Shown in pieces: positions 4,970 to 27,183 of a DNA stretch of 27,183 nt. The notes beneath the pieces are model-generated. The model had not been told where the DNA came from. It did no database searches and was given only the letters and a program-made list of their open reading frames with translations. Numbering within the stretch: position 1 is the stretch's first letter; each line of letters opens with the position of its first letter. The DNA is from a virus. The stretch spans positions 1-27,183 of the IMG/VR virus record IMGVR_UViG_3300021964_000417; one strand, 5' to 3'. The position numbers and the translations under genes were made by a program.

Positions 4970-4978
4970 AAGATATAA

Positions 4979-5401
4979 ATGAGTAACGAGAAAATACTTG
5001 AGCTTGATCAAAAGCTCACTACACAAAGGACCACTTGGTCTAACAACATAAAGGAACTGGCTCAAAGTCTTAAACATATTAACGGTATGGAAGAGACTAT
5101 AGCCGGGATTTTGTCTTCACGTCAAACAATGGTTGATCAAATGGCATATCTTAATACAAAAATTAAGGAGCAAAAAAATGCGATCAATGCAAGGTGGCGA
5201 GAAGCCTATATTAGGTATTATGAATACGACTATAAACTAGGTGAAAAACAAAAAGAAAGGTTTATAGAAAACGATCTTGTTCAAGAAAATACCAGACTAG
5301 CTCTCTTAGAAAATCAAGTTGAATTTATGAGAGAATCGGTAAAGACTCTAGATAACATGGGCTTTGCCGTCAGAAACAGATTGGCAATAAAAGATCTGTA
5401 A
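4979..5401 (+). CDS. uvsY: Recombination mediator UvsY-like
   Basis: A 140-residue, helix-rich protein, nearly the length of T4 UvsY (137). UvsY loads UvsX recombinase on gp32-covered DNA. The middle (INARWREAYIRYYEYDYKLG) parallels the UvsY segment with ARLDYYSGRG, and the end (ESVKTLDNMGFAVRNRLAIKDL) parallels ALDAIKSRGFAIKHIQDM of T4. It sits just before a UvsW gene, and in T4 the two are also neighbours. The ATG at 4979 is preceded by AAGATATAA with no Shine-Dalgarno. Similarity is by eye but length, position and C-terminal motif agree. Its TAA stop is in the same frame as uvsW. Confidence 0.75.
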   Translation: MSNEKILELDQKLTTQRTTWSNNIKELAQSLKHINGMEETIAGILSSRQTMVDQMAYLNTKIKEQKNAINARWREAYIRYYEYDYKLGEKQKERFIENDLVQENTRLALLENQVEFMRESVKTLDNMGFAVRNRLAIKDL

Positions 5402-5428
5402 GCTGAAAATAAAAAAGCCCGCAAAAAT

Positions 5429-6937
5429 GTGGAGCTTAGTTTGACAGAAAATAAACAGTTGCTACGAATTGACGATGCAACTGAGATGGAGCTTGAGCAG
5501 CTTAACATTTCTCTGAACAGGCGGATTGAATCTTGGCGATTTAACCCACTTGTAAAGAAGGGTTTATGGGACGGTTACATCTCCTACATTAAGGATGACA
5601 AATGGATTCCTTCTGGTCTTTGGCGAGAAGTGATGAACATTTGCAAAGAATATAATTATGAACTCAAGTTAAATGGTATTACTGAGCTATTTGACACTGG
5701 GATCAATCAAGAAAAGTTTACTCAGTGGGCATTGGACTTCTTTGAAAAGTCTGAGATTACACCAAGAGATTATCAAATTGACGCTGCTTTTAACATCTTA
5801 AAATTTAAGAGGTGTTTGAGCGAATTGGCGACTTCAGCAGGTAAAACGTTAATTTCCTTCCTTACAGTCGCATATATATTAGAACAGAAGAAAGCTGAAC
5901 GCATTCTGTTTATCGTACCTAATGTATCACTTGTAGTACAAGCCAGTGAGGATTTCTTAGACTATAATTACAGAAATCAAGTCGACATTAAGGTACAACA
6001 AATTTATAGTGGCCAAAAGATCAGAGCAGGTCGCAACGTAGTAATTGGTACTTATCAATCTCTGGTCAAAAAAGACAAAGCCTATTTTGAACAGTTTGAC
6101 GCTGTTATTATTGACGAAACACATAAAGCTAAATCACAATCGATCAAGACCATCCTTCAGAAATGCGTCAATGCCGATTATCGTTATGGTTTATCAGGTA
6201 CAATCCCAAAACCCGGCACACTAGATCGATTAACTCTAATGGCCTACACTGGCCCCGTGATTACTGAGGTTTCAGCTAATTTCTTACAAAATGAAGGACA
6301 CATTGCTAAATGTAAAGTAAAAGTAATTAAGATGGATTATGCTCCACAAAGTACTAAAGATGCATTTAGAGAAATGTCACAAAACAGATATGAAAGCAAA
6401 GACGTATTTAAGTTCGAACAAAACTATATCATCAATTCGCCAGGCCGTCTCAACTTCGTTACTAATGTTATTTCCAGAGTACGAGGCAATAGTCTTGTTC
6501 TTTTCCACAGGATTGAGCACGGTAAAAAGTTATACGAAACGCTTAGACAAGAAAGTAATAAGCGTGTATTTTATGTTGATGGTGGAACTGACAAAGACAT
6601 TCGCGAAGAATACAAAAAAAAGATGGAAGCCGGCGAAGAAGTCGTAATCGTGGCTAGTTATGGTACCTTCTCAACGGGTATTTCGATTAAGAAGATTCAC
6701 AACATTTTCTTTACTGAATCATTCAAATCAGAGGTGATTATTCGTCAATCAATTGGTCGTGGATTGAGACAACATGCATCAAAAGATGCGGTAAACATTA
6801 TTGATTTTGTAGACGATTTAAGCTCATCAGATTGGGATAACTACCTAATTAGACATGCTAAAGCTCGCCAAGCCATCTATAGAGAGCAAAAGTTCTCGTT
6901 TGATGTAAAAAATGTCAGTTTTGAAGGAGATATATAA
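5429..6937 (+). CDS. uvsW: UvsW-like SF2 DNA/RNA helicase
   Basis: A 502-residue protein, essentially the length of T4 UvsW. UvsW unwinds R-loops and branch-migrates recombination intermediates, helping the switch to recombination-dependent replication. Helicase motifs in order: Walker A ATSAGKT (K139), DETH box (D229-H232), motif III LSGTIP, and motif VI QSIGRGLR (Q440-R447). The N-terminal RFNPLVKKGLWDGYISY matches the YRFNPRF-GNWDGRI segment of T4 UvsW. The start is a GTG at 5429. The ATG overlapping it at 5427 is out of frame and soon stops. The frame is open back to the uvsY stop 27 bases upstream, with no ATG in that interval. Confidence 0.9.
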   Translation: MELSLTENKQLLRIDDATEMELEQLNISLNRRIESWRFNPLVKKGLWDGYISYIKDDKWIPSGLWREVMNICKEYNYELKLNGITELFDTGINQEKFTQWALDFFEKSEITPRDYQIDAAFNILKFKRCLSELATSAGKTLISFLTVAYILEQKKAERILFIVPNVSLVVQASEDFLDYNYRNQVDIKVQQIYSGQKIRAGRNVVIGTYQSLVKKDKAYFEQFDAVIIDETHKAKSQSIKTILQKCVNADYRYGLSGTIPKPGTLDRLTLMAYTGPVITEVSANFLQNEGHIAKCKVKVIKMDYAPQSTKDAFREMSQNRYESKDVFKFEQNYIINSPGRLNFVTNVISRVRGNSLVLFHRIEHGKKLYETLRQESNKRVFYVDGGTDKDIREEYKKKMEAGEEVVIVASYGTFSTGISIKKIHNIFFTESFKSEVIIRQSIGRGLRQHASKDAVNIIDFVDDLSSSDWDNYLIRHAKARQAIYREQKFSFDVKNVSFEGDI

Positions 6938-6940
6938 TAA
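6929..6940 (+). promoter_or_regulatory. Candidate phage promoter motif GATATATAATAA (second copy)
   Basis: It overlaps the uvsW stop codon and is identical over 12 bases to the motif at 2475-2486. It stands 35 bases before the ATG of the first gene of the internal-protein block (6976), which is a sensible distance for a late-type promoter. Only the repeat and position support it. Confidence 0.35.
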
Positions 6941-6975
6941 TAAGATAATCAAATTAAAACAAATATAGATTACAG

Positions 6976-8247
6976 ATGGAAAAATTAAAGTCATTCGAGC
7001 AATTCGTTGTAGCTAAAACAGAAGCTAACAAAATCGAAGTGCAAGAACAGAACAACAACAAGAGACAAAACGAGGCTGAAACGTTTAAAACACTTTTAGC
7101 AGAATTTGACGTAACATCGGTTAAAGAGTTGACTGAAGAACAGAGATCAGAATTCTTCGAAAGACTTAGAGGTGTTGAAATGAATGAGTCTTTTATGCAA
7201 CTTAACGAGGGTACAAGAGGCCAATTCGGTAAGATTGACAAAAAAGGAAATATTGTTTCAGTTTACACTCACTACGATTCATATCCAGAGAACATGTTAC
7301 CCTTGATCAAAAAAGGTTACATGAAAGGCCAAAACGTTGACGCTGTCCTACAAGGTGGTAATTCATCAGGTTTGGAAGCGGATCCAGATTCAATGAACTT
7401 CTATGGTGAAGATGATCAACTTAATGGTAACGTTAAATCATTTGACAGATACGTTAGAACTGCAGCAAACGATTGGGGCGCAGAATATGTTTACCTTTGG
7501 GACGAAAGATCTAAAGAGTGGATGATGGCAGACCTTTATGGTGGTGGTCAATTAAGACCAGCTTTCGAATCTGTAGTTAATGAAGCTATTAAAGTTACAG
7601 GTAAAAGAGATGCTAAAAAGGTAGTTACTCAATACAATAAAATTTTAATGGGCGAACTAAGTGGTATTGGTGCATCAGGTGATGAAAAAACCATTTTAGG
7701 TGCAGTTAAGAAGCTATTCGTAGATGCAATGGAAGATGCTAATTTCCACAGAGAAAAAGATGCATGTGCAACTGCAATCAAAGGTAACATTGCTTCAATT
7801 CCAGTAATCGTTGATGGTTTAGGTGGAATGGCAGTTAATATTGGTGCTACTAGAATTAAAGCGGCTTTAGAAGATTATTACTCTAGACTTTCAAATGCAG
7901 CTGGTTGGTCAGGTCTTGCAATTGTTGAAGGTACTGCGCTTTTCTTAGAACAGCTTGGATTTGCTCAAATGGGTCAAGATCTAATGGATAAATTCAATGC
8001 ACAGTTTGAAGGTAATGCCGTAACGGTTAACGTTGAAGAAAAGCTATATGAATACTTTGTTAAATTGGATGAAGCTGAAGTAAAATCAGATGAAGACTTT
8101 AAAGAGTATGCATTCTCAGTTTTACAAAAAGCTTTCGGCGAAGATTTTGACGAAGCTAAAGCTCAAGAAGTTGTAGACGGACTAATCTCTAAACACGAAG
8201 GAGATTATGGCGCAATGGTAGGAGCATTACAATCTTCATTAGGTTAA
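6976..8247 (+). CDS. Putative head-packaged internal protein with cleavable leader
   Basis: A 423-residue protein of unknown function. The start MEKLKSFEQFVVAK carries the capsid-targeting-like motif seen in several neighbours. Residues 15-75 are a charged helical spacer. L76-N77-E78 before G79 is a perfect (L/I)xE-G site for a gp21-type prohead protease. Directly after it begins a recognisable phage module, RGQFGKIDKKGNIVSVYTHYDSYPENM (about 81-107), similar to small phage proteins of the form TRxxIGI-x-GxxxxIYxHxDGYP. A Gly/Ala-rich helical C-terminal region follows (about 230-350), then an acidic end. The site falls exactly at the module boundary, which supports processing. I infer a prohead-targeted protein whose mature form starts near residue 79. 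Biochemical role unknown. Confidence 0.6.
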   Translation: MEKLKSFEQFVVAKTEANKIEVQEQNNNKRQNEAETFKTLLAEFDVTSVKELTEEQRSEFFERLRGVEMNESFMQLNEGTRGQFGKIDKKGNIVSVYTHYDSYPENMLPLIKKGYMKGQNVDAVLQGGNSSGLEADPDSMNFYGEDDQLNGNVKSFDRYVRTAANDWGAEYVYLWDERSKEWMMADLYGGGQLRPAFESVVNEAIKVTGKRDAKKVVTQYNKILMGELSGIGASGDEKTILGAVKKLFVDAMEDANFHREKDACATAIKGNIASIPVIVDGLGGMAVNIGATRIKAALEDYYSRLSNAAGWSGLAIVEGTALFLEQLGFAQMGQDLMDKFNAQFEGNAVTVNVEEKLYEYFVKLDEAEVKSDEDFKEYAFSVLQKAFGEDFDEAKAQEVVDGLISKHEGDYGAMVGALQSSLG

Positions 8248-8260
8248 TATAAACATAGAG

Positions 8261-8285
8261 ATTGGCTCAGTTTTTCTGGGCCAAT
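8261..8285 (+). terminator. Hairpin before the ligase-like gene (weak terminator or processing site)
   Basis: Stem ATTGGCTCAG with CTGGGCCAAT (10 pairs, one wobble), loop TTTTT. It starts 14 bases after the stop of the 6976 gene and ends 15 bases before the ATG at 8301. It is followed by CTTATT and not a clean T tract, so it may be a partial terminator or an mRNA processing or stability element. It makes the TTG at 8262 an unlikely start. Confidence 0.5.
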
Positions 8286-8300
8286 CTTATTCATACCATT

Positions 8301-9587
8301 ATGGCTAAAATACTTACATATACAGAATTCTTAACAGAGAAATTCAATTCGCATTCTGGCACTGAATTGATCATGGAAGGTGGGGCTGCAGGTCACATGT
8401 CACACCCATTCGATGATAAATCACTAACATTTGGAGACTTTAAAAACTTAATTGAAGCTGGTCTTAGTGGAGAACTAAACTTTGAAGAGGATGCTACTGA
8501 AAAAACAGATGGCCAAAATGTATTTGCAACTATTCAAGATGGTGAAGTTAAGTTTGCTCGTAATAAAGGTGAACTTATAAATCCAATGGATCTTCCAACA
8601 TTTAAACAAAAATTCGACGGCCATGCATCTGCAATGGTTGAAGAAACTTTTAAGTTTGCCGCAGAAGATTTAGCCAATGCACTAATTAAATTACCAGCTA
8701 AAGTTCAACAAGAAACGTTTGAAAACGGCCTTAATTGGATGAATATGGAATTGATCTATTCTAAAAATCCAAACGTAATCTATTACGATAGAGATGTTAT
8801 TCAATTTCATGGTATAAAAAAGACGGATGGTAATGGTAATATAATTGCAGAAGACAGTAAACCTGCCGCAATAATAGCAAAAGCATTAGAGTCTGTTAAA
8901 GCAAACGTTGGTAAAACCTTTACAATAATTCCCCCACAAATTATTAAACTTGGCAAAGATATTGATTTTGAAAAGAACAAAGCCAAATTCTTAAAACAAG
9001 TTGAAGCACTTAGAACAAGATATAATTTAACAGACGCTGACGAAGTTAGTCGCTATCACGAAATGTGGTGGAGAGAAGAAATCGAAAAAGCTTTCGGTGA
9101 TTTAACTCAAGATCACAAAGAGGGTTTATTACTTAGATGGGCATATGAAGACAAGAAGACTCTAAACATGAGAGCACTTGCGAAAGAGGTAACTCCAGAA
9201 CAAATGGAAGCCATTAGAAAGTTTGATAAAGAGGACTCTAAGAAAAAGTATAAAGAAAACATTAGACCATTTGAAGATCTATTCTTAGAACTAGGTTCTG
9301 TAATTTTAAAGAATGCAAGTAACTTTGTTGCTGCCAACCCAGACGCTGAGATGCAAAGACTGCATAATCAAATTAGAACTGAGGCTGATAAAATTAAAAA
9401 AGGCGGTTCTGTTGATCAAATCACTAAAGTTGAAGCTGAATTAGCCAGACTCGAAAGAATTGGTGGCATTGAATCTATTGTGCCAACCGAAGGTATCGTT
9501 TTTGTTTACAAAGGTAAAACATTTAAACTAACGGGTACATTCGCTGCAATTAATCAGCTCATGGGTATCATTAAGTACGGACGATAA
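8301..9587 (+). CDS. Nucleotidyltransferase (RNA/DNA ligase-like) protein, putative head-packaged
   Basis: A 428-residue protein. Start chosen at ATG 8301, because an upstream TTG at 8262 lies inside a hairpin. Ligase-type motifs: K68-T-D-G71 (motif I, possible lysine nucleotidylation), KFARNKGEL shortly after, MNMELIYS (motif III-like), E397-G-I-V-F (motif IV) and K409 in FKLTG (motif V). This order fits the covalent nucleotidyltransferase superfamily that includes RNA and DNA ligases and capping enzymes. The start MAKILTYTEFLTEK has the capsid-targeting-like motif with L11-T-E13. I24-M-E26 before G27 is a second protease-type site, preceding the module GGAAGHMSHPFDD. Neighbouring gene 9598 has a second ligase-like domain. 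Substrate unknown. Confidence 0.65.
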   Translation: MAKILTYTEFLTEKFNSHSGTELIMEGGAAGHMSHPFDDKSLTFGDFKNLIEAGLSGELNFEEDATEKTDGQNVFATIQDGEVKFARNKGELINPMDLPTFKQKFDGHASAMVEETFKFAAEDLANALIKLPAKVQQETFENGLNWMNMELIYSKNPNVIYYDRDVIQFHGIKKTDGNGNIIAEDSKPAAIIAKALESVKANVGKTFTIIPPQIIKLGKDIDFEKNKAKFLKQVEALRTRYNLTDADEVSRYHEMWWREEIEKAFGDLTQDHKEGLLLRWAYEDKKTLNMRALAKEVTPEQMEAIRKFDKEDSKKKYKENIRPFEDLFLELGSVILKNASNFVAANPDAEMQRLHNQIRTEADKIKKGGSVDQITKVEAELARLERIGGIESIVPTEGIVFVYKGKTFKLTGTFAAINQLMGIIKYGR

Positions 9588-9597
9588 ATACTATAAT

Positions 9598-11445
9598 ATG
9601 GCATTACAAAACCTAAAAACATATTTCGAATCTACTAATATTAATGACTTTCAAGAGTTATTAAAACAAACTTGTGTTGTAACTGAAAAAGTACAGGCAT
9701 CAAGCTTCCATGTTAAAAGAGAAGCTGATGGCACGGTTGAGTTTTTCAAGAGTGGTTCAAAGGTTGCTATGAATAAGGTAGATCGTACCTTAGTAAAATA
9801 CTACGAAAACGGAATTAAACACTTTAACACACTCTTAAAAGAAGTTGTTGAAGAAATGCCTTCTGATTGGAAATTCGGATTTGACTATATGGTTGATAAA
9901 AAAACCATTGATATTGAGTATGATTTATTACCAAAGAATAATCTAATTCTTACACATATTCAAGTTTTAAATCCAGCTAATCCTACTCAAATTAAAAGAG
10001 TAATTAGAGATCCACAAATCTTAAAAAAGTGGGCCAACAAGTTAGACGTACAAGAGACACCTATTGTATTTGAAGGCCAATTACAATCACATCAAAAACA
10101 AGAATTGATTGACTTGTTGCAATTAAGTATCGAAGCGTTTGGTACTAAGTTTAAAAACGAAAGTTTTACTAGAAAGATTTACAATATCTTTAATAATGGT
10201 CTATCAAAAACTGCACTTAACACAGATCTTGATAAACCTATTGATAGTTTAATCCTTAATTTCTACGAAGGTCGCAATCCAAAAAGTTTTAAATTAGAAA
10301 GATTTGATAGAGCAAAACAAGAAGATAGACAACCATCTGACATGTATCAAATTTCTATTTTAGATCTAGTTGAATTTTTAGATGGTTTTGATCTAAATAG
10401 TATTCAACTTAAAGAAGAAGATGCTGATCTAAGATATATTGAATTAATCTCAGCGGTCTTTAATGCATACGTAGAAAAGAATGCTTCAAAATATATTGGC
10501 GCTGATTTTGATTCAGCTGAATTTGCAGCTGCTCCAGGATTTGAACTTAACACTGCATATATTAGAAGTGAAAAAACACTTTCATTGGTTCAAAATAAAG
10601 TCTTAGCTGAACTATTTAAAATAGCACTAGGATCATTTAGAAAAAAGAGAACCAAAGAAACAGATATAATTAACGCTGACTTAATGGCACAGATCAACGA
10701 TAACGTCGAAGAGATCGAAGCTATTGTAATGAGCAAAACAAACGAACAAGACGTTATGGATTTTAAAAGATACCTACTAAATCAAAAACTTAAGGGCGAA
10801 GTTAGTCCAATTATGGAAGCCTTAACTGTGAATTACCCAGAACAAGGCGAAACTCCAGTAAATATGTTTGTTGGACGTTTCCAACCGTTTACATTGGGCC
10901 ACGCTAAAGTTATTGAAACTATTCACAAACAAAATGGCTATCCAGTGGTAATCCTCTTAATTAAGTCAAAGTCTAAAAAACCAGAAGATGCATTTAAGAG
11001 ACCTTATGATGAAGATACACAAATGGCAATGCTCGATAGATTAAAGTCAAAGTATCCAATTGAGAAGGTTTACATATTACCGACAGCCGGTATCGATCAT
11101 ATGTTTAATGCAATGAGAAGCGATGGTTACGAGCCAGTACTTTGGGGTACAGGAACAGATAGAATGAAGAGTTATGGCTTTCAAGTAGATAATCCAGAAT
11201 ATAGAGAAGATCTTGGAGTTAGAACAGATTTTGGACTATTTGAAATACCAAGAACTGGTAAAAACATTTCAGCAACACAAGTTAGAAACGCAATGTTAGA
11301 CGGTGACGAAAAACTGTTTAAGAAACTAACACCAAAGCCAATTCACGGCATGTACACTGAGCTAAAAGAAAAATTAGAGGCATCGATGGGTGTTACTGCA
11401 GAGAGTCATTTAATGACGTTTGAACAGTTTATCACTAAACTCTAA
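9598..11445 (+). CDS. Fusion of ligase-like N-terminal domain and NMNAT-type nucleotidylyltransferase
   Basis: A 615-residue protein. The N-terminal domain (about 25-120) has T-E-K31-V-Q-A-S-S-F, then FFKSGSKVAMNKVDRT and YYENGI, the pattern of phage ligase/nucleotidyltransferase-like domains with K31 as candidate nucleophile. The middle (120-415) is helical and unknown. The C-terminal domain (about 420-580) is an HxGH-type nucleotidylyltransferase: FVGRFQPFTLGH435 (TLGH in place of HxGH) and I557-S-A-T-x-x-R563, as in NMN adenylyltransferases and cytidylyltransferases. It may make NAD from NMN, or activate another phosphate substrate. The extreme C-terminus, LMTFEQFITKL, repeats the targeting-like motif of its neighbours, so the protein may be packaged in the head. 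The NMNAT call is secure as a fold. The ligase call is by motif only. Confidence 0.7.
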   Translation: MALQNLKTYFESTNINDFQELLKQTCVVTEKVQASSFHVKREADGTVEFFKSGSKVAMNKVDRTLVKYYENGIKHFNTLLKEVVEEMPSDWKFGFDYMVDKKTIDIEYDLLPKNNLILTHIQVLNPANPTQIKRVIRDPQILKKWANKLDVQETPIVFEGQLQSHQKQELIDLLQLSIEAFGTKFKNESFTRKIYNIFNNGLSKTALNTDLDKPIDSLILNFYEGRNPKSFKLERFDRAKQEDRQPSDMYQISILDLVEFLDGFDLNSIQLKEEDADLRYIELISAVFNAYVEKNASKYIGADFDSAEFAAAPGFELNTAYIRSEKTLSLVQNKVLAELFKIALGSFRKKRTKETDIINADLMAQINDNVEEIEAIVMSKTNEQDVMDFKRYLLNQKLKGEVSPIMEALTVNYPEQGETPVNMFVGRFQPFTLGHAKVIETIHKQNGYPVVILLIKSKSKKPEDAFKRPYDEDTQMAMLDRLKSKYPIEKVYILPTAGIDHMFNAMRSDGYEPVLWGTGTDRMKSYGFQVDNPEYREDLGVRTDFGLFEIPRTGKNISATQVRNAMLDGDEKLFKKLTPKPIHGMYTELKEKLEASMGVTAESHLMTFEQFITKL

Positions 11446-11482
11446 TATATAGTATAAGAATATAAAAACACAAATATAAAAA

Positions 11483-13201
11483 ATGAAAAAATTCCAAGAA
11501 TTTATCAACGTCAATGCTAAGCCAGTTAACGAGGCTACGGTTGAAATGGACGCAATGAATCCAGAAGATAAAGACTTTTTAAAGTTTTTAAAAAAGAATA
11601 AGGTTGAGATTATTGATACCATGATGGACGGCCCAGCAGGAGGTCACCCTGTTATTACGATGCAAGGAAAGAGAAAAGATCTTGAAAGAGTTTTAGCTGA
11701 TAGCGTATATGGATGGGACGATCCGGGTTTAGCTGAATACATCGAAGAGTCAGCTAATGTTAACGAATCAAGAATTGTGATCAAAAGAAAATACACTGAA
11801 AACCACCCAGCAATGACAGCTGGAATGCACGCTTCTATTAGAAACAAAGTGCTAGAAGCTATTGCTGATGGTAAATTGACTAAAGAAGAGTTTGATAACT
11901 TGGTAAGAGAGATGTCAAAAGATTCTGGCAGATGGGCTAGAAGAAACGCAAGATACTTTAACGTATCTGAAGATGGTGTTTCACTTTCTAAATATGGTAG
12001 AAAAATCTTTAACACTATTAGTGTAACTGAAACTGAAACTTTAGAAGAAGGTCGTAAATTTGTGGCGGCTGCAACTAAAGCTAAACAAGAAGGTAAGACT
12101 GAATTTGAATTTGACGGTAAAACTTACCCAGTAACAGTTAAGGACGCTCCGAAAATTGAAGAGGGAGAAGAAGTAAAAGAGACTTTCTTACATGAATCGT
12201 TCTCAACATTCATTGAATCTATTTCATTAAACGAAGCGTTTAAGTCTAGTCTATTCGCTAGTTTATTTACAAAACGCGGTGGAAAAATAGATAAAAATTT
12301 AGCTAAAGCATTTTATGGTACAGCTAAAGTAAAAATGGATCTAATTGAAGATGAAGATCTTTTGACAATGGATCCTCAAACAGCTTACAAAAACAAGCAA
12401 GCTGACACTATTATTTTCTATATTTCAGATACTCCTAAAGAGAATCCATATGCACCGAGAGATTCATGGACCGATCATAAGTCAATCCCAGGTGAAGGCT
12501 ACTTATTAGCAGTTGCTTCTGGTGATAATACATTCTATACTTCTGTATGGGGTGGAGGCCATTTCAGTCGCGGTAACAGAGAACTGGCACTGAAAAAAGT
12601 AGACAATGGTTCAACTGACTCTATTGGTATTTCTAAGAAGTACAAAGGTTGGGACGGAACAGGTCTTTATAACGTAAAAAGAATTGCTGAAGTTGCAGAT
12701 AGAGCCATTGTTCTTAATATGGCGCTTCTAAGACAAAAGTATTCTTCTGAAGAACAAAGAGCTGAAAGAGCTTCTGCTAAAAAAGGAGCAGTTGCATTTA
12801 AGTCTGATAAAGATTTTAAGAAAGATAACATGGCAAGATACCAAGAGATCTTAGCTAATAAAGCAGCTTCTTTACCACTAGATAAAATGGTTGCAGATGC
12901 AATTGAAGCTTTAACTACTCAAATTAAAGACGGTTTAGCTAAAGGTGAAAAAGGTCGTTACGGTGATCTTATCATTGGTCGCAAAGCTAATGGTTCTGAA
13001 GCTAAAATGAGAGACGCTTCAAATCATATGTCAAATATCTTAGATGATTATAGCAGATATGTTGATTACATCAAACAAGCCGAAGAGTCTGAAAAGAGAT
13101 ACGGTGACAGAGAGTCTTACTACGAAAGAGAATCTAAGAACTATGCTAAGAATATTAAAGACAAGATCAATCAGATTGAATCATTTGACTATGTCTGGTA
13201 A
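11483..13201 (+). CDS. Putative processed internal head protein, multi-site precursor
   Basis: A 572-residue protein of unknown function. It starts MKKFQEFINVNAK (targeting-like motif). It contains several sites that fit a gp21-type prohead protease: I87-E-E before S90, L187-E-E before G190, I225-E-E before G228, and L249-N-E before A252. Just before the last one is SFSTFIESISLNEA, a second internal copy of the targeting-like motif, as if two leader-plus-domain units were joined. Residues 103-180 include a basic helical segment (RWARRNARYF). Residues 108-115 of the precursor to about 225 lead to EFEFDGKTYPVTVKD. The C-terminal unit (252-572) is mixed alpha/beta with a long charged helix at the end. 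I infer proteolytic release of two or more products in the prohead. Confidence 0.55.
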   Translation: MKKFQEFINVNAKPVNEATVEMDAMNPEDKDFLKFLKKNKVEIIDTMMDGPAGGHPVITMQGKRKDLERVLADSVYGWDDPGLAEYIEESANVNESRIVIKRKYTENHPAMTAGMHASIRNKVLEAIADGKLTKEEFDNLVREMSKDSGRWARRNARYFNVSEDGVSLSKYGRKIFNTISVTETETLEEGRKFVAAATKAKQEGKTEFEFDGKTYPVTVKDAPKIEEGEEVKETFLHESFSTFIESISLNEAFKSSLFASLFTKRGGKIDKNLAKAFYGTAKVKMDLIEDEDLLTMDPQTAYKNKQADTIIFYISDTPKENPYAPRDSWTDHKSIPGEGYLLAVASGDNTFYTSVWGGGHFSRGNRELALKKVDNGSTDSIGISKKYKGWDGTGLYNVKRIAEVADRAIVLNMALLRQKYSSEEQRAERASAKKGAVAFKSDKDFKKDNMARYQEILANKAASLPLDKMVADAIEALTTQIKDGLAKGEKGRYGDLIIGRKANGSEAKMRDASNHMSNILDDYSRYVDYIKQAEESEKRYGDRESYYERESKNYAKNIKDKINQIESFDYVW

Positions 13202-13268
13202 ACTTAAAAAAGTATTCTTTGAGTATTGGATTAAACCATGGCACTCATTGTAATCAAAACATTATATT

Positions 13269-13748
13269 ATGATCCACGTAAAATTATTCGAACAATTCCT
13301 AAATGAGGATATTAAAATTAGAAAGAGTATTTCAGAAGAAAAGGCTAATGAATTGCTTGATTTTCTAAAACAGGCTATCGGTAAAAAATTAAACTGGAAA
13401 GAGTTTTCAAAATGGCACGGTGGGGCTGCTCAATTAGGTAAAAAATCACCAGCACAAAAAAAGTTCTTAGAAGACAATTTTGAATGCGAGATTACAGATG
13501 TTACAATGCGCTACGATGCTGATCGTAAATATGCACAGATTGCAATAGTATCTCTACAAAATGCAAAATGGCATACTAGCCGCAATATGGATCTTGAACT
13601 TAAATTATATAAAGAAGATCCTAATTGGACACCAAAGGAAGGCGATACTAAAGACAGGTCATTAGATTCAGGTCTTTTTAGATACCATTGGGAAAAGCAA
13701 TTCGACAGATTTTCAGATATAACTAGAATAGGTCGATTCGGTGTTTAA
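13269..13748 (+). CDS. Putative internal head protein with targeting-like leader (159 residues)
   Basis: The start MIHVKLFEQFLNED carries the targeting-like motif, with L11-N-E13 as a possible prohead protease site at exactly the residue number seen in the 8301 and 13767 proteins. The remaining about 145 residues are mixed alpha/beta and charged, with WKEFSKWHGGAAQLGKKS at residues 43-60 and a Trp/Tyr-rich C-terminal part. The family is not recognised. The leader and the run of similar neighbours suggest a protein packaged in the capsid. The ATG at 13269 is preceded by AACATTATATT with no Shine-Dalgarno. Confidence 0.55.
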   Translation: MIHVKLFEQFLNEDIKIRKSISEEKANELLDFLKQAIGKKLNWKEFSKWHGGAAQLGKKSPAQKKFLEDNFECEITDVTMRYDADRKYAQIAIVSLQNAKWHTSRNMDLELKLYKEDPNWTPKEGDTKDRSLDSGLFRYHWEKQFDRFSDITRIGRFGV

Positions 13749-13766
13749 ATAAAATAACATAAAGAT

Positions 13767-14306
13767 ATGAAAATAATTCCAACATTCGAACAATTTATAA
13801 ACGAGAAGTCATATAGAATGACTGGCATGTATGCTGCAAAAGGCCTAGTAGGTAAAGTAATGCAAGCGTTTAGACAAGAAATTAAAACAGTAAAATACGA
13901 AGGTATTAATGTAGTAACTCAAGAAGAAGTTAATAAAGAATGGGCTAAGTTTGAAGATACAGCTAAGAAGATCATTTTAGATCAAGTAGAAAAAGGAGCA
14001 GGCGGTATGGATGGTATCTTATTTGTTACTGCCAATCTTTTTAATGGATTCGCTATAGATGAGGTTAATGGTTTAAACAGTGAAGGCTCTGACACTTTAT
14101 ATCTTTCATACGAGTTAGTAATTAACGTAGGCTTTATGGATGATGTTAATGGCTCAAAATTTAAAAGAAAAATCGATAAAACTGGAATGATGAATATTCC
14201 GTTAGCAACTAAGAGAGATCTTATTTACGGTGAATATGATGAATCAGTTGGTAATAACAATCTTGAAATTAGAGATACTGAATTAATTCAAATAGACGGA
14301 AAATAA
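13767..14306 (+). CDS. Putative internal head protein with targeting-like leader (179 residues)
   Basis: It starts MKIIPTFEQFINEK, with I11-N-E13 as a possible cleavage site. The coding DNA ATTCGAACAATT in this leader is identical to that in the leader at 13285, hinting at recent exchange or duplication of the leader. The rest is mixed alpha/beta with a Gly-rich stretch around GAGGMDGILFVTANLFNG and no Cys. No catalytic motif was recognised. It stops one base before the ATG of the next gene, so the two are probably translated together. Function unknown. Confidence 0.55.
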   Translation: MKIIPTFEQFINEKSYRMTGMYAAKGLVGKVMQAFRQEIKTVKYEGINVVTQEEVNKEWAKFEDTAKKIILDQVEKGAGGMDGILFVTANLFNGFAIDEVNGLNSEGSDTLYLSYELVINVGFMDDVNGSKFKRKIDKTGMMNIPLATKRDLIYGEYDESVGNNNLEIRDTELIQIDGK

Positions 14307-21032: not shown

Positions 21033-21497
21033 ATGGCAAACATAGATAACACATGCGCAGATCTTGATGTGAAGGACTATCACAGTGAAGCACAAGACAC
21101 CTTTGGCTTGATTTTCAACAAGCAAAAAGAATTACAAGAGCGTTTAGGCTTTAACTTTGATGGTTGGACTATTAAAGAGATTGCTGATTTTTGGATGGTT
21201 AACAAGCATGCAATGAGCGATGAGCTTAATGAAATGTTCGATGCACTTGGTGGTATTGAAGATGGCATTGGCAACGCAGCTTGGAAATACTGGAAACAAG
21301 ATAACGCTAAAGCAGCGAATATGACGATTGCTGATCTATCTGAATCAGATCGTTTAGAGCTTTTTTACGAGTGGATTGATGGTCTTCATTTTTATATGAA
21401 CTTTGCCATCGCGATTGGTATGACTAGTAAAGACGTGGTTAATTTGTATATGGCAAAGAATGCCGAGAATCACGATCGCCAAGAAAGAGGTTACTAA
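21033..21497 (+). CDS. Dimeric all-helical dUTPase/dNTP pyrophosphohydrolase-like protein
   Basis: A 154-residue protein. E113-W-I-D116-G-L-H119-F and the ending NLYMAKNAENHDRQERGY match the C-terminal half of the dimeric dUTPase/MazG-like family (ExxDxxHF, then YxxKNxxNxxRQxxGY). The N-terminal helices contain DELNEMFDAL, a candidate for the metal-binding ExxE pair. The family hydrolyses dUTP, dCTP or related dNTPs to the monophosphate and pyrophosphate. In a phage that replaces thymine or builds on hydroxymethyluracil it would shape the dNTP pool. In a standard phage it would keep uracil out of DNA. The family call is firm, the substrate open. Confidence 0.75.
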   Translation: MANIDNTCADLDVKDYHSEAQDTFGLIFNKQKELQERLGFNFDGWTIKEIADFWMVNKHAMSDELNEMFDALGGIEDGIGNAAWKYWKQDNAKAANMTIADLSESDRLELFYEWIDGLHFYMNFAIAIGMTSKDVVNLYMAKNAENHDRQERGY

Positions 21498-21519
21498 TCA
21501 TATAAACGCTACGTAAATA

Positions 21520-22923
21520 ATGCTATTAGACATTGAACAAACAGATAAGGAATTAATCGTCAGCTACTATGACACCGAAGGCAAAGTAGCGTTTAAAAGG
21601 TACCCAGTAAATAAGTTTGAAAATTGGGTAGTTGCTGAAGAAACAGATAGATGGAAGGATCAAAGATTTACAAATTGGGATGGTCGTCCTATTAAGCGAT
21701 CTATTTCAAGAAGTTTTAATAAGTTTAGTCTTCTCTATTTCATGGACTCGTTGCCACAAAAAGATCAAGATGAGATCTTTGAGTTCAATATGCCTCGCAC
21801 ATACTTTGTTGATATTGAGACAGAGATCGTCGATGGCTTCCCAAAACCAGAAGAAGCTAAGTCACGCATTCTCTCGTTCTCTATTATTACACCTGAACGA
21901 AAGGCAATCGTATTAGGTCTTGAGGACATGAGCAGCGAACAGATCAAAAAGATTGAAGATGATACAAATAATCACTTCAAAGACTATGATCAAGATTGGG
22001 AATTTAGTTATTATAAATTTAAGGACGAGTATAACATGTTGTATACGTTCTTACATAAGTTTTTACCTAAGTTCCCAATGATGACGGGTTGGAATTTCAT
22101 CAACTATGACTGGCAGTATATTGTTAATCGATGTAAAAGATTGCAAATTGATTTGACAGATGTTGCTATCACAGGATCACTTGATAAAAACGACTCTAGA
22201 CCATTACACATGGGTATTCTTGACTATATGCAATTGTATGATAAGTATGATCGTTCGGTTGCAGTTAAAGAGTCAAATACTCTTGATTTTGTATCAAGTG
22301 CTGTACTTGATGTAGCCAAGATTAAATACACTGGTGGTCTACAAGAATTATACGAGAACAATTTTCAAAAATATATTTATTACAACGTTGTCGATTCATG
22401 CTTAGTTTATTACATTGATCAAAAGCTTAGATCAATGGAAGTACTATTAACTCTAGCAACTATTACTAGAATGCCTCTATACAAAGCCGCATCTCCTGTG
22501 GCAGTTACTGAAGCTCTAATTGCTAGAAAGTTAATTGAACAAAACAAGAAGATTGGCACCGAATGGAATAAAGAAGATGCAAAAAAGGATGGCAAATATG
22601 AAGGTGCATTTGTAAAGCAACCGATCGTAGGTTACTATTCAGGTGTTTCAGCATTTGACTTTGCATCACTATATCCATCTATAATGCGTCAATTTAATAT
22701 TTCGCCAGATGCATTTATTGAAATTGTTCCCGAATCCAAAATCGCTGAGCGTCGTAAAGACGAAAATGTAATTGTTTGTGAAAATGGTGTTGTTTACCAA
22801 AAAGAAGATTCTATTCTTAAGAAAATTCTGAGTGATTTGTACTCACAACGTAAACAGTATAAACGAACATCATATGAATATTACGAAAAAGCACATGAAA
22901 TTGAAAAAAAATTAGGCCGCTGA
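21520..22923 (+). CDS. 43: Family B DNA polymerase (gp43-like), N-terminal part: exonuclease, palm motif A, half of fingers
   Basis: A 467-residue protein ending at TGA 22921-22923. Exonuclease motifs: Exo I D98-I-E100, Exo II GWNFINYDWQYIVNR, Exo III YNVVD292. Polymerase motif A is D380-F-A-S-L-Y-P-S followed by IMRQFNISPDAF, as in T4 gp43. The chain stops after a basic helix (LYSQRKQYKRTS) corresponding to the first fingers helix, before motif B. The missing motif B, motif C and thumb begin in a separate gene at 26830, so the polymerase is split in the fingers. No intein or intron signature is visible at the end. A palindrome overlaps the stop codon and terminator-like hairpins follow. It is expected to work as a complex of the two chains. 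Confidence 0.92.
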   Translation: MLLDIEQTDKELIVSYYDTEGKVAFKRYPVNKFENWVVAEETDRWKDQRFTNWDGRPIKRSISRSFNKFSLLYFMDSLPQKDQDEIFEFNMPRTYFVDIETEIVDGFPKPEEAKSRILSFSIITPERKAIVLGLEDMSSEQIKKIEDDTNNHFKDYDQDWEFSYYKFKDEYNMLYTFLHKFLPKFPMMTGWNFINYDWQYIVNRCKRLQIDLTDVAITGSLDKNDSRPLHMGILDYMQLYDKYDRSVAVKESNTLDFVSSAVLDVAKIKYTGGLQELYENNFQKYIYYNVVDSCLVYYIDQKLRSMEVLLTLATITRMPLYKAASPVAVTEALIARKLIEQNKKIGTEWNKEDAKKDGKYEGAFVKQPIVGYYSGVSAFDFASLYPSIMRQFNISPDAFIEIVPESKIAERRKDENVIVCENGVVYQKEDSILKKILSDLYSQRKQYKRTSYEYYEKAHEIEKKLGR

Positions 22924-22936
22924 TTTTGTAAAATCA
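22921..22936 (+). other. Palindrome overlapping the polymerase stop codon
   Basis: TGATTTT, GT, AAAATCA: a perfect 7-base inverted repeat starting at the TGA stop. The two-base loop is too tight for a stable RNA hairpin, so a protein operator or chance are the options. It directly abuts the larger hairpin at 22936. Confidence 0.3.
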
Positions 22937-22983
22937 TAATAGTAGCGTGATATATAACCTTAAGCAGCGCTGCTATTATTTTT
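22936..22983 (+). terminator. Hairpin after polymerase N-part, terminator-like
   Basis: ATAATAGTAGCG pairs with CGCTGCTATTAT over 12 positions (one wobble). The loop is 20 bases and contains GATATATAA. TTTT follows the stem. It may stop transcription of the cassette ending with the polymerase N-part. Confidence 0.55.
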
Positions 22984-23002
22984 ACTTAATTGGATTAAAA
23001 CG

Positions 23003-23027
23003 GGTCTACCTAAAATAGACCTTTTTT
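23003..23027 (+). terminator. Rho-independent terminator before nrdB
   Basis: GGTCTA, loop CCTAAAA, TAGACC, then six T. With the previous hairpin it forms a tandem stop between the polymerase N-part and nrdB. The bases up to 23073 hold no gene and no clear promoter match. Confidence 0.7.
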
Positions 23028-23073
23028 GGTCTTAACACCGGTCTGTAAACACTTAAAAAAATAATAGTAAAAT

Positions 23074-24084
23074 ATGTCTTCACTTTTTAAAGAAAGAATA
23101 GAATACAAGCCATTTGAGTACCCTGAGTACTACCAAGAAGGATGGCTTCCACAAGCTCAAGCCTTTTGGCTCCATACAGAAATCTCAATGCAAGGTGACG
23201 TGAAAGATTGGCACGAAAACCTAATGCCTCATGAAAAAAATCTTGTAGGTAATATTCTTTTGGGCTTTGCTCAAACTGAGTGTGCTGTATCTGATTATTG
23301 GACTAACATGGTAACTGGTTGGTTCCCTAAGCATGAGATTAGACAAATGGCAATGATGTTCGGTTCACAAGAGACCATTCATGCTGTTGCATATTCATAT
23401 CTAAATGAAACTTTAGGTCTTGAAGATTTTAAAGCGTTCTTACATGAACCTGCAATTGCAGAAAAGTTTGAACACTTAACTTCAACTGAAGCTAATTGGA
23501 CTCACGAAGATTTATTAACTAATCCTAAAGCCAGAAAGCAAGTTGCTAGATCATTGGCTATTTTTAGTGCATTTGCAGAAGGTGTATCACTTTACTCGTC
23601 ATTTGCGGTACTCTATTCATTCCAAATGAGAAACCTTCTTAAAGGTATTGGTCAGCAAATGAAATGGTCAGTTAGAGACGAATCACTACACTCAAAAATG
23701 GGATGTAGATTATTCCGTCACATGTGCCAAGAGTATCCAGAGCTTAAGGATGAGGTTCAGGACTCAGTTATTGAGGCTGCTCGAATGATGGTTGAAATGG
23801 AACACAAATTTATTGATAAAATGTTCGAGCAGGGCGATCTTGCAAATATGGAAGCTGAAAACTTAAAGCACTTTATTATTAAGAGAGCCAATGAAAAGAT
23901 CGCAGAACTTGGTTACACTGAAGGTCCATTTATGGAATATGATGAGACTAAAGCTGGTGAATTGGATTGGTTCTATCACTTGACTGGTGGTCACACTCAC
24001 ACCGACTTTTTTGCTATCAGACCAACTGATTACGCAAAAGCAGGTGAAGATGAGAACTGGGACGAGGACGATTTGTTTGATTAA
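23074..24084 (+). CDS. nrdB: Ribonucleotide reductase class I small subunit
   Basis: A 336-residue protein that holds the metal-tyrosyl radical cofactor and passes the radical to NrdA. Ligands in E. coli spacing: E69 (in place of D84), E100 and H103, E169, E203 and H206. The radical tyrosine is Y107 (four after H103). The acidic C-terminal tail (DENWDEDDLFD) matches the tail that docks on NrdA. The first ligand is Glu and not Asp, as in some other R2 groups. The gene precedes nrdA by 21 bases, and the order B-A is the reverse of T4. It feeds dNTPs to replication by the flanking polymerase. Confidence 0.92.
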   Translation: MSSLFKERIEYKPFEYPEYYQEGWLPQAQAFWLHTEISMQGDVKDWHENLMPHEKNLVGNILLGFAQTECAVSDYWTNMVTGWFPKHEIRQMAMMFGSQETIHAVAYSYLNETLGLEDFKAFLHEPAIAEKFEHLTSTEANWTHEDLLTNPKARKQVARSLAIFSAFAEGVSLYSSFAVLYSFQMRNLLKGIGQQMKWSVRDESLHSKMGCRLFRHMCQEYPELKDEVQDSVIEAARMMVEMEHKFIDKMFEQGDLANMEAENLKHFIIKRANEKIAELGYTEGPFMEYDETKAGELDWFYHLTGGHTHTDFFAIRPTDYAKAGEDENWDEDDLFD

Positions 24085-24105
24085 TTAAGTAAGTTAAATA
24101 ATATT

Positions 24106-25935
24106 ATGAGTAAAGAAATTATAAATTACGGTGCTGAATTAGGCTGGGAACTCGGGGTAGACTTTCCAACTTGGGCCAACACTGAGATCTATGTAAAAAC
24201 AATTAGCAAAGGTTATTGTTATCAAAACGAAACACCAAAGGATGCGTATTGGAGAGTGGCAACTACAATTGCAAAACGCTTAAACAAACCTGAACTTGCT
24301 AGCAAATTTTTTGATTATATATGGAAAGGTTGGTTGAACTTAGCTTCGCCAGTCTTGTCAAATACTGGCCTTGAAAGAGGTTTACCAATTTCTTGTTTTG
24401 GTATCGATGTTGCGGATTCTATCCATGATATTGGTGCAAAAAACTTAGAGATGATGCTATTGGCTAAACATGGTGGCGGTGTAGGTATTGGCATTAATCA
24501 AATTAGACCAGCTGGTGCAAAAATCACAGGTAACGGAACAAGCGACGGTGTCGTACCATTCTGTAAAATTTACGATTCTACAATACTTGCAACTAACCAA
24601 GGGTCTGTCAGACGTGGAGCTGCGTCCGTTAATATTGATATTGAACACGATGATTTTTGGGAATGGTTAGAGATTAGAGAGCCTAAGGGTGATGTTAATC
24701 GTCAATCATTAAACTTGCACCAATGTGTTGTAGTGCCAGATGGCTTTATGCAAAAAGTAGAAGCAGGTGATAAAGAGGCTAGAAAACGTTGGGCTGCAGT
24801 ACTTAGAAAGCGCAGAGCAACCGGTGAGCCATATATTATGTTTAAAGGCAATGTTAATCGTCAAAACCCAGATGCTTATAAGCAAAATGGCCTTAAAGTC
24901 TATATGACTAACATTTGTTCAGAGATTACATTGCATACCGATGAATCTCACTCATTCGTATGTTGTTTGTCATCTGTAAACTTGGCAAAATATAACGAAT
25001 GGAAAGACACTGATCTTATTTACACTGCAACGTGGTTCTTAGATGGTGTTCTTGAAGAGTTTATTCAAAAGGCTAAATTCATGAGAGGGTTTGAAAACTC
25101 TATCAGATCAGCAGAAAAAGGCCGTGCTCTTGGACTTGGTGTTCTTGGATGGCACACATATCTTCAAGAAAAGAACATTCCATTTGAATCATTGACTGCT
25201 CAGTTTGAAACTAGAAAGATCTTCTCACAATTAAAGATTGAAAGCGAAAGAGCATCAAGAGACATGGCTCAAGAAATGGGCGAACCACTATGGTGTGTTG
25301 GAACAGGCATGCGTAACACTCACTTAAGAGCTATTGCACCAACTGTAACCAATTCTAAATTGAGTGGTAACGTTTCTCCAGGTATTGAACCTTGGGCAGC
25401 AAACGTATTTACAGAGCAAACTTCAAAGGGTACTTTTATTCGTAAAAACCCAACACTAGAAAAAGTATTAGAGACAATTGGAAAAAACACTAAGTCCACT
25501 TGGGACAAGATTTTGGAAGATGGTGGTTCCGTTTTTGGCTTACCATGGATTGATGATTATTTTGTGGCAGGGTTTGCGGATGTTGAAGGTACTGCAGGTA
25601 TTCAAAAGCCGCTTACTGCAAAGCAATTAGAAAAACTACCTAAACTAGAACAAGCTGACTATATTCCACTTAAAGATGTATTTAGAACGTTTAAGGAGAT
25701 TAATCAACTTGAACTAGTAAAACAAGCTGGCGTAAGACAACAATACGTTGATCAAGCAGTTTCACTTAACTTAGCATTTCCAAAAGAAGCTGAACCTAAA
25801 TTTATTAATCAGGTTCACTTAGAGGCATATCGCCAAGGAATCAAAACCCTCTATTACATGAGAACAGAGTCTGTACTTAGAGGAGACATCGCAGCACAAG
25901 CTACAAATCCCGATTGTATCAGTTGTGATGGATAA
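24106..25935 (+). CDS. nrdA: Ribonucleotide reductase class I large subunit
   Basis: A 609-residue catalytic subunit reducing ribonucleoside diphosphates. Visible residues: C97 (redox Cys, in PISCFGI), N269-x-C271-x-E273 (active-site triad), C286/C287 (redox partner region, FVCCLSSVN), Y583-Y584 (radical relay), and a C-terminal C604-I-S-C607 pair for thioredoxin or glutaredoxin exchange. It is shorter than E. coli or T4 NrdA (about 750-760) because the N-terminal ATP-cone is absent, so dATP activity control through that domain is unlikely. Otherwise complete. It is followed directly by a hairpin cluster. Confidence 0.93.
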   Translation: MSKEIINYGAELGWELGVDFPTWANTEIYVKTISKGYCYQNETPKDAYWRVATTIAKRLNKPELASKFFDYIWKGWLNLASPVLSNTGLERGLPISCFGIDVADSIHDIGAKNLEMMLLAKHGGGVGIGINQIRPAGAKITGNGTSDGVVPFCKIYDSTILATNQGSVRRGAASVNIDIEHDDFWEWLEIREPKGDVNRQSLNLHQCVVVPDGFMQKVEAGDKEARKRWAAVLRKRRATGEPYIMFKGNVNRQNPDAYKQNGLKVYMTNICSEITLHTDESHSFVCCLSSVNLAKYNEWKDTDLIYTATWFLDGVLEEFIQKAKFMRGFENSIRSAEKGRALGLGVLGWHTYLQEKNIPFESLTAQFETRKIFSQLKIESERASRDMAQEMGEPLWCVGTGMRNTHLRAIAPTVTNSKLSGNVSPGIEPWAANVFTEQTSKGTFIRKNPTLEKVLETIGKNTKSTWDKILEDGGSVFGLPWIDDYFVAGFADVEGTAGIQKPLTAKQLEKLPKLEQADYIPLKDVFRTFKEINQLELVKQAGVRQQYVDQAVSLNLAFPKEAEPKFINQVHLEAYRQGIKTLYYMRTESVLRGDIAAQATNPDCISCDG

Positions 25936-25940
25936 GATAA

Positions 25941-26025
25941 AAGGTGAGGTTTGAAGACCTCGTCTTAGGACCGTGGTAGTTCACGGAAGAGGCCGGAAGT
26001 TCGCTACTATCCGGCCTCACTTTTT
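25941..26025 (+). ncRNA. Three-hairpin structured RNA ending in a terminator
   Basis: Three stems in 85 bases just after the nrdA stop. Stem 1, 25941-25966: AAGGTGAGGT with ACCTCGTCTT, 10 pairs including two G-U, loop TTGAAG. Stem 2, 25971-25986: CCGTG with CACGG, loop GTAGTT. Stem 3, 25989-26018: GAGGCCGGA with TCCGGCCTC, 9 pairs, then AC and five T. Stem 3 can act as terminator. The outer GTGAGG and CCTCAC can also pair in an alternative fold, so two states are possible. The block is far richer in G and C than its surroundings. It may be a plain terminator cluster, a small RNA or a leader element for the clamp gene. It does not fit a tRNA. Confidence 0.55.
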
Positions 26026-26083
26026 ATGAAACCTTTTCCAAGTAGATCGTACAATAATTAAACATTATCAAAAAACAATTTTT

Positions 26084-26827
26084 ATGAAGTTAACAATTGA
26101 TCGTATCGACCAACACGCATTGACAGAGTTTATCAACCGTGTTAAACTTATCGATTCCTTCATTTACATGAAGGTCGCCAATGGACAGATTAAATCTACT
26201 GTCTATCTCCCACAGAGAGATGCTGTAAAGCACCACTCAGTACCAGTTAATAGCATCTTCCAAGTGTCAGAATGGCCTGATACAGACAAAGAGATGAAGA
26301 TTGCTTTCTTTGAAGGTAGCAAAGTTATTGAAGCTATTAAGCACTTTGATCATGATGCAATTCAAGGTGAACTTGAGTTTATCGAAAATGATAACGAGCT
26401 TGTAGCATCTACATTGCGTATCTTTAACGATGAACTTGAAATTACACTTTCATGTTCAGAGCCATCACTTGGTTTTAAAGATCTTTCACAAGATCAAATT
26501 GATGCTATCTTTGCACGTGAAAACAATGACTTTGACTTTAGCTTTGATACTCACATGATCGGTAAAGTTAAGAACTTGTTCTCTCTTGATAAAGATGAAA
26601 CATTTAGCATCAAATCTGATGTTGCAGGTGTAAACGTTAGTGGTAAGTCATTTAGCGTAGTAGTAACTCCAGATACTAGCGGTAACGGTGAGGTCACTGT
26701 ATACAAAAAGTACTTAAACTTGCTTGACAAAGATGAACAAACTGTATTTGTTTCAGGATCAAAGGTTGTATTCCAATCAAACGACTCTGATACTCTATTA
26801 ACAGTTTCAACTTGTCAAACAGCCTAA
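26084..26827 (+). CDS. 45: Putative sliding clamp (gp45-like)
   Basis: A 247-residue protein, close to T4 gp45 (228). It starts MKLTIDRIDQHALTEFINRV, a helix after a first strand, and continues as repeated strand-rich segments with few Cys and a net acidic charge, as expected of PCNA/gp45-type clamps (two similar domains, helices facing DNA). The second half has LFSLDKDETFSIKSDVAGVNVSG and a C-terminal strand VVFQSNDSDTLLTVSTC. It sits 2 bases before the C-terminal polymerase gene, a natural partner. No single motif is decisive, so this rests on length, start, fold impression and neighbours. Confidence 0.55.
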   Translation: MKLTIDRIDQHALTEFINRVKLIDSFIYMKVANGQIKSTVYLPQRDAVKHHSVPVNSIFQVSEWPDTDKEMKIAFFEGSKVIEAIKHFDHDAIQGELEFIENDNELVASTLRIFNDELEITLSCSEPSLGFKDLSQDQIDAIFARENNDFDFSFDTHMIGKVKNLFSLDKDETFSIKSDVAGVNVSGKSFSVVVTPDTSGNGEVTVYKKYLNLLDKDEQTVFVSGSKVVFQSNDSDTLLTVSTCQTA

Positions 26828-26829
26828 GT

Positions 26830-27183
26830 ATGACGATTGAGGAACTAGAAAATAAACCAGTAGATCAATTGACTGATGATGAGGCGAAGCTGCTTGTAGA
26901 TCACTACAAGCAGCTCTCTGCCAAATATACGGCTTACGAGCAGGCAGTTAAATTGACTCTTAACTCTATCTACGGAGCATTTGGTAACAAGTGGTTCCAC
27001 TTTTTCAATATTGACATTGCTGAGTCAATTACAAAACAGGGCAAAAATGCAATTCTCTATTCAGAGACTATTCTCAATAAATACGTTCAAGAATTTTGGC
27101 ACAAAGACACTGCGGTTCATCAACACTTTGGTATCAAAGTAAAAGGTAAAGTTGAAAAGCCTGCAGTAATCTACATTGACACT
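26830..27183 (+). CDS. 43: Family B DNA polymerase (gp43-like), C-terminal part, cut by window end
   Basis: 118 visible residues from ATG 26830, open to the window end. Residues 1-35 are helical and acidic/basic, matching the second fingers helix of T4 gp43. Residues 41-51 hold motif B, KLTLNSIYGAFGN. The visible end VIYIDT is the start of motif C (YxDTD), so the rest of the palm and thumb lies beyond the window. Together with the 21520 gene it makes a full polymerase with nothing evidently missing at the junction. The ATG is 2 bases after the clamp stop, so translation is probably coupled. There is no room for an intron upstream, and the chain starts with its own Met, so it is a separate polypeptide. 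Confidence 0.9.
   Translation, partial: MTIEELENKPVDQLTDDEAKLLVDHYKQLSAKYTAYEQAVKLTLNSIYGAFGNKWFHFFNIDIAESITKQGKNAILYSETILNKYVQEFWHKDTAVHQHFGIKVKGKVEKPAVIYIDT

What the first reader, a model, noticed from the sequence alone, without database searches (positions are those of the whole stretch)
21520..27183. DNA polymerase split in the fingers with nrdB, nrdA, an RNA element and the clamp between the halves
Exo I-III and motif A are in the gene at 21520-22923, which ends in the first fingers helix. Motif B (KLTLNSIYG) and the start of motif C are in a new gene from 26830. Aligned by eye to T4 gp43 nothing is missing at the break. Split gp43 genes have been reported in some T4-related phages of Aeromonas and Acinetobacter, and RM378 has a polymerase split elsewhere. 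Here the two parts are separated by 3.9 kb of functional nucleotide metabolism and replication genes, not by a homing endonuclease alone.
Basis: partly seen in the sequence, partly recalled or inferred. Interest (0 to 1): 0.8.

Follow-up and report, generated by a model that had tools for sequence, protein, structure and literature searches.

The report
DNA polymerase made from two genes
This phage, like a whole group of related phages, builds its DNA-copying enzyme from two separate proteins whose genes lie nearly 4 kb apart with other DNA-making genes between them; split phage polymerases are known, but this one is ancient, fixed across a broad group and broken at the same loop as an unrelated known case.

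Summary
Confirmed. The T4 gp43-like family B polymerase is two genes: N (21520-22923: exonuclease, motif A, first fingers helix) and C (from 26830: second fingers helix, motifs B and C; cut by the contig end). Nothing is missing at the break, at the fingers tip. Active-site residues are divided: RB69 R482/K486 equivalents on N; K560/N564 and the motif C aspartates on C.

It is no artefact. All 125 loci holding the five genes (66 distinct sequences) keep the order N-nrdB-nrdA-clamp-like-C, halves 3.7-5.8 kb apart. Both halves are under strong purifying selection (dN/dS 0.01-0.08); 18 relatives' contigs of 74-212 kb show no other family B polymerase. The same break occurs in Chryseobacterium, Tenacibaculum, Prevotella (Lak), PAU and other huge phages, sometimes with a second break at motif C carrying a split intein. 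The Aeromonas 44RR split, at the same tip, arose independently.

Most likely: an obligate two-chain polymerase assembled non-covalently. Novelty: new variant of a known kind. The clamp identity is only probable. The RNA element is real (15 of 18 pairs covary), follows nrdA rather than the polymerase, is not in Rfam, and has relatives behind unrelated genes in other phages.

The parts
21520..22923 (+). polB-N: first half of a gp43-like family B DNA polymerase (467 aa): exonuclease, motif A, first fingers helix ending at the fingers tip
   Evidence: Pfam PF03104 and PF00136, PHROG 2062, RB69 gp43 by sequence E 6e-37 and by fold
21811..21819 (+). Exo I (D98-I-E100), invariant
   Evidence: alignment A1
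22657..22677 (+). Motif A, D380-F-A-S-L-Y-P
   Evidence: alignment A1
22849..22863 (+). Fingers R444 and K448, equal to RB69 R482 and K486
   Evidence: alignment with RB69 gp43; invariant
23002..23030 (+). Terminator-like hairpin behind polB-N (terminator-like hairpins found in 16 of 59 relatives' intervals)
23074..24084 (+). nrdB, ribonucleotide reductase small subunit
   Evidence: PF00268 E 5e-56
24106..25935 (+). nrdA, ribonucleotide reductase large subunit
   Evidence: PF02867 E 6e-90
25939..26023 (+). Structured RNA directly behind nrdA: three hairpins, invariant UUAGGACCG and UUCGCUAC, U-rich tail
   Evidence: fold z -5.3; 15 of 18 pairs with changes on both sides; no Rfam match
26084..26827 (+). 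Probable gp45-like sliding clamp (247 aa)
   Evidence: profile match to genes between the polymerase halves of PAU, MA9V-1, PTm5 96.5%; to gp45 75.5%
26830..27183 (+). polB-C: second half of the polymerase, cut by the contig end in motif C; about 400 aa in relatives
   Evidence: PF00136, PHROG 1918; relatives' C chain against RB69 gp43 E 3e-20
26950..26964 (+). Motif B K41 and N45, equal to RB69 K560 and N564
   Evidence: alignment with RB69 gp43; invariant
27178..27183 (+). Start of motif C (D117-T), last two codons of the record

Best explanation
The phage makes its replicative family B DNA polymerase as two separately translated chains that fold together into one gp43-like enzyme. The N chain brings the exonuclease, the first part of the palm with motif A and the first fingers helix; the C chain brings the second fingers helix, motifs B and C, the thumb and a conserved C-terminal tail. 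The break is at the exposed tip of the fingers, where a variable loop normally joins two antiparallel helices, so the pair can assemble without a covalent link through the shared palm and the paired helices. Shown: gene order, conservation, selection, division of the active-site residues, no other PolB seen in relatives' contigs. Inferred: physical association, activity, and translation of the C chain right behind the clamp-like gene.
For: Order N-nrdB-nrdA-clamp-like-C in 125 of 125 loci, 66 distinct sequences. Break at the fingers tip with nothing missing. Active-site residues divided between chains and invariant. dN/dS 0.018-0.049 for N and 0.010-0.079 for C. Only one N and one C hit per relative, no other PolB, no PolA. 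Both chains match RB69 gp43 by fold; in single-chain models the low-confidence parts lie at motif A (N) and at motif B and part of the rest (C), as expected if the partner is needed. Aeromonas phage 25 gp43A and gp43B, split in the same kind of way, co-purify and polymerise (PMC2988022).
Against: No complex was modelled and no protein was made. The C chain is cut in the window itself. The largest relatives' contigs may be incomplete, so another polymerase is not strictly excluded. The low-confidence model regions could also come from shallow alignments.
Confidence: 0.87

Rival explanations
1. The halves are rejoined after transcription or translation, by a split intein or by RNA trans-splicing, giving a normal single chain.
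For: Relatives LR756500, Lak-A1 and PTm5 carry split-intein parts, but at motif C, not at the fingers. Split polB with inteins is known in MIJ3 (PMC6892783).
Against: N ends about 20 residues after the last conserved position and C starts about 40 before motif B, which leaves no room for intein parts; none is found. No group I or other known intron in 21400-27183 at E up to 1. Complete genes with their own stops lie between.
Confidence: 0.05
2. The halves no longer form the replicative polymerase: N works as a free exonuclease, C is a remnant or has another role, and another enzyme copies the DNA.
For: N contains the whole exonuclease domain.
Against: Motif A and the fingers residues on N, and motifs B and C on C, are invariant and under strong purifying selection. 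No other PolB or PolA in relatives.
Confidence: 0.04
3. Assembly error or a broken gene in this one contig.
For: The window is an IMG/VR fragment that ends inside the C half.
Against: A second contig with a 100% identical N half (L003) repeats dUTPase-N-nrdB, and 124 further loci repeat the whole order. Cultured phages PAU, MA9V-1 and PTm5 have the same break.
Confidence: 0.01

Closest known systems
Split gp43 (43A/43B) of Aeromonas phages 44RR2.8t and 25
   Same: T4-type PolB in two genes, broken at the same fingers tip; the phage 25 proteins co-purify and are active (PMC2988022).
   Different: There the halves are 48 bp apart (44RR) or separated by a GIY-YIG endonuclease gene (25); the polymerases belong to the T4 branch and were split independently. 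Here nrdB, nrdA and a clamp-like gene lie between.
Polymerases of Sphingomonas phage PAU, Chryseobacterium phage MA9V-1, Tenacibaculum phage PTm5, Prevotella Lak phages and LR7565xx huge phages
   Same: Same break and same branch of the tree. PTm5 is already annotated in part as an 'intein-containing split DNA polymerase precursor'.
   Different: Other genes or long distances between the halves. LR756500, Lak-A1 and PTm5 have a further break at motif C, with intein parts.
Split PolB of Methanobacteriales and of Nanoarchaeum equitans
   Same: Family B polymerase made from two genes (PMC4104785).
   Different: Archaeal enzymes; the N. equitans parts are joined by a split intein. Break points were not compared here.
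Split PolB of Pseudomonas phage MIJ3
   Same: Jumbo-phage PolB in two open frames (PMC6892783).
   Different: An intein with an HNH gene lies between; no intein at the fingers break here.

Membership tests
Family B DNA polymerase, T4 gp43 type | Exo motifs and motifs A, B and C with the catalytic residues | tested here: met
   Invariant in alignments A1 and A2 over both chains; RB69 R482, K486, K560 and N564 equivalents present. Motif C is complete only in relatives.
Family B DNA polymerase, T4 gp43 type | gp43 fold | tested here: met
   Foldseek top hits are RB69 gp43 for both chains; the C model has low confidence.
Aeromonas-type split gp43 | Break at the fingers tip | tested here: met
Aeromonas-type split gp43 | Common descent of the split | tested here: not met
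   44RR pairs with intact SP18 at 100/100 in the N, C and joint trees
Aeromonas-type split gp43 | Halves adjacent or separated only by a mobile element or untranslated stretch | tested here: not met
   nrdB, nrdA and a clamp-like gene in between in 125 of 125 loci
Aeromonas-type split gp43 | The two chains form an active complex | not testable with these tools
   Needs protein work
Split-intein polymerase | Intein parts at the ends of the two chains | tested here: not met
   No intein domain in the window's chains. Present at motif C in LR756500, Lak-A1 and PTm5.
gp45 sliding clamp (gene 26084-26827) | Recognisable gp45 sequence or fold | tested here: inconclusive
   hhalign 75.5% with the wide profile, 1.4% with the narrow one; no structure predicted
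Known RNA families (element 25939-26023) | Match to an Rfam 15 model | tested here: not met
   Nothing at E up to 1 in 21400-27183; nothing at gathering score in the window and 12 pattern-matched loci

The most novel reading that the evidence does not exclude
The two-gene state is kept because it is useful: the N chain can act alone as an exonuclease, and polymerase activity is set by production of the C chain, which is translated right behind the clamp, so that assembly of the enzyme and its loading on DNA are controlled together.
Probability: 0.1. Interest if true: 0.72.

Novelty: new variant of a known kind. Interest (0 to 1): 0.52.

Why it matters
A replicative polymerase that must be assembled from two chains appears to be the normal state, not an exception, across a broad group of large phages, most of whose named hosts are Bacteroidota. 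Two separate lineages were cut at the same fingers tip, which marks a natural break point, and the question how a split replicase assembles and keeps its fidelity can be tested with cultured phages (MA9V-1, PAU, PTm5). Some relatives appear to make it from three genes, one join being a split intein at the catalytic motif. Annotators who expect one polB gene will miss or misname the halves.

Tried and rejected
Group I intron or other Rfam RNA at the break: none. tRNAs: none. Intein at the fingers break: none. A terminator behind the N gene as proof of separate transcription: found in only 16 of 59 intervals, so dropped. Large exchange of halves by recombination: N and C identities correlate (0.78) and the largest differences are about 9 points, so not claimed. 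A single origin of the split with intact MaF61 outside: the joint tree agrees at only 53/42, while the separate N and C trees place MaF61 inside; its branch is very long, so this is left open, and no close relative of MaF61 was found. PDB profile search for the clamp: nothing. blastn for the RNA element in annotated phages: nothing. The RNA pattern scan is loose: by my own rough estimate tens of its hits could be chance, so weight is put only on those confirmed by the covariance model.

Full report
What is in the window. The window is the whole of a 27183 bp IMG/VR record. Gene 21520-22923 is the first half of a family B DNA polymerase; a new gene from ATG 26830 is the second half, cut by the end of the record inside motif C. 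Between them lie nrdB, nrdA, a structured RNA and a clamp-like gene, all on the + strand. A pyrophosphohydrolase/dUTPase gene (21033-21497) stands before the N half.

Is it complete and under selection? By phmmer the N half is matched up to RB69 gp43 residue 487 and the C half from about residue 555-560 on. Aligned as joined chains against the intact polymerases of SP18, S-CRM01, MaF61 and AG-345-P14, the break falls in the variable loop at the tip of the fingers; the cyanophage-type enzymes have few residues there, so nothing needed is missing. Residues that meet in one active site are divided: motif A D380 and R444/K448 (RB69 R482/K486) are on N; K41/N45 (RB69 K560/N564) and the motif C aspartates are on C. 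All are invariant over the aligned relatives. dN/dS is 0.018-0.049 for N and 0.010-0.079 for C. No further family B polymerase was found in 18 relatives' contigs of 74-212 kb and no family A polymerase in nine of 126-212 kb.

Is the arrangement real? Two scans of IMG/VR gave relatives of each half. All 125 loci, the window included, that hold the five genes have them in the order N, nrdB, nrdA, clamp-like, C. They represent 66 distinct sequences, since some contigs were fetched twice, and the halves are 3657-5775 bp apart. In 30 of the 125 the two nrd genes are only about 29% and 39% identical to the window's yet stand in the same place: the reductase has been exchanged in situ, needing at least two changes on the polymerase trees. 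The C gene starts within a few bases of the end of the clamp-like gene (TAATATG, TAATG and similar), so the two are probably translated together (inference).

How old is the break? The same break is present in LR756500 (46% identical N half), other huge-phage records, Lak phages, Sphingomonas phage PAU, Chryseobacterium phage MA9V-1 and Tenacibaculum phage PTm5. In LR756500 the order N, nrdA, clamp-like, C is kept over about 15 kb. In PAU, MA9V-1 and PTm5 two to four genes lie between; in several huge phages the halves are more than 100 kb apart. Trees put all of these apart from the T4 and cyanophage polymerases, while split 44RR sits beside intact SP18 with full support, so the fingers tip was cut at least twice. 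The one intact member near this group, Flavobacterium phage MaF61, has too long a branch to place. Most named hosts in the group are Bacteroidota; the window's own host was not determined.

A second break. LR756500, Lak-A1 and PTm5 have their C half cut again at motif C. The first piece ends in an intein N part (PF14890 or TIGR01445), and in LR756500 and Lak-A1 the second begins with an intein C part ending HN before S. In PTm5 a gene annotated as a Vsr endonuclease lies between. The pattern resembles the fractured genes with split inteins of Dassa et al. 2009 (known to me; in the reference list of PMC6892783). These phages would build one polymerase from three genes.

Mechanism. The best explanation is an obligate two-chain enzyme assembled without covalent joining. 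AlphaFold models of the single chains are confident in the exonuclease and other self-contained parts but fall below pLDDT 50 at N 351-394 (motif A) and at C 30-67 (motif B) and 173-224, places a partner would complete. This is suggestive only, since the alignments were shallow. The precedent is direct: 43A and 43B of Aeromonas phage 25 co-purify and have polymerase activity (PMC2988022). How the break arose is open: insertion and loss of a mobile element, or erratic intein loss as proposed for Methanobacteriales PolB (PMC4104785), would both fit.

The clamp-like gene. No family library recognises it. Its profile matches genes lying between the polymerase halves of PAU, MA9V-1 and PTm5 (96.5%), and the combined profile matches gp45 at 75.5%, whereas the narrow one does not. 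Size, place and these matches make a sliding clamp likely, not certain.

The RNA element. Window 25936-26032 folds far better than shuffles (z -5.3). In 38 relatives 95% of cells pair, 15 of 18 pairs show changes on both sides, and all controls are far lower. In this clade UUAGGACCG lies within 120 bases behind nrdA in 124 cases, also behind the exchanged nrdA. A covariance model finds one copy in each of 12 of 17 records and related elements behind other genes in other phages; in the genome of L161 the only match lies behind a different gene. Rfam 15 does not have it. Its function is unknown; it ends in a terminator-like hairpin, but one copy per genome argues against a mere terminator.

Verdict. 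Split phage polymerases are a known kind and both halves already have PHROGs families, so this is a new variant: an ancient, fixed split with a conserved set of other genes between the halves.

Noticed in passing
window 25939-26023; relatives among L210-L329; L370: A structured RNA family absent from Rfam 15: invariant UUAGGACCG and UUCGCUAC, 15 of 18 pairs covarying, one copy in each of 12 of 17 records, behind nrdA in this clade and often 9-16 bases behind the stop codons of unrelated genes in other phages. A longer form with a GCGGCUGCUGCC hairpin and GUGAGC tail also covaries.
   Followed up: partly
L162 27706-31118; L195 and L204; L209 3719-6557: Second polymerase break at motif C in LR756500, Lak-A1 and PTm5, with intein parts on the pieces: a polymerase in three genes.
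   Followed up: partly
between polB-N and the clamp-like gene, 30 of 125 loci (for example L042, L065, L072): nrdB and nrdA replaced in the same place by versions only about 29% and 39% identical, at least two events.
   Followed up: partly
behind nrdA in 41 distinct intervals (for example L036, L098, L130): Insertion hot spot: 0.4-2 kb of cargo between the RNA element and the clamp-like gene, often a 138-aa protein with a signal-like start (MKNFILTLALA...).
   Followed up: partly
window 1338-14306: Six neighbouring proteins start with a motif like MKxxxxFEQFINE, one more holds it inside and another at its end; it recalls the capsid-targeting sequence of T4 internal head proteins (from memory).
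   Followed up: no
L122 (contig 3300046170_000378); L062: polB-N open frame of only 367 aa in the L122 contig, and nrdA broken or interrupted in L122 and L062; frameshift, intron or assembly error not examined.
   Followed up: no
L166 3950-6931: Flavobacterium phage MaF61 has an intact 994-aa polymerase on a long branch next to or inside the split group: an early intact form or a re-fusion.
   Followed up: partly
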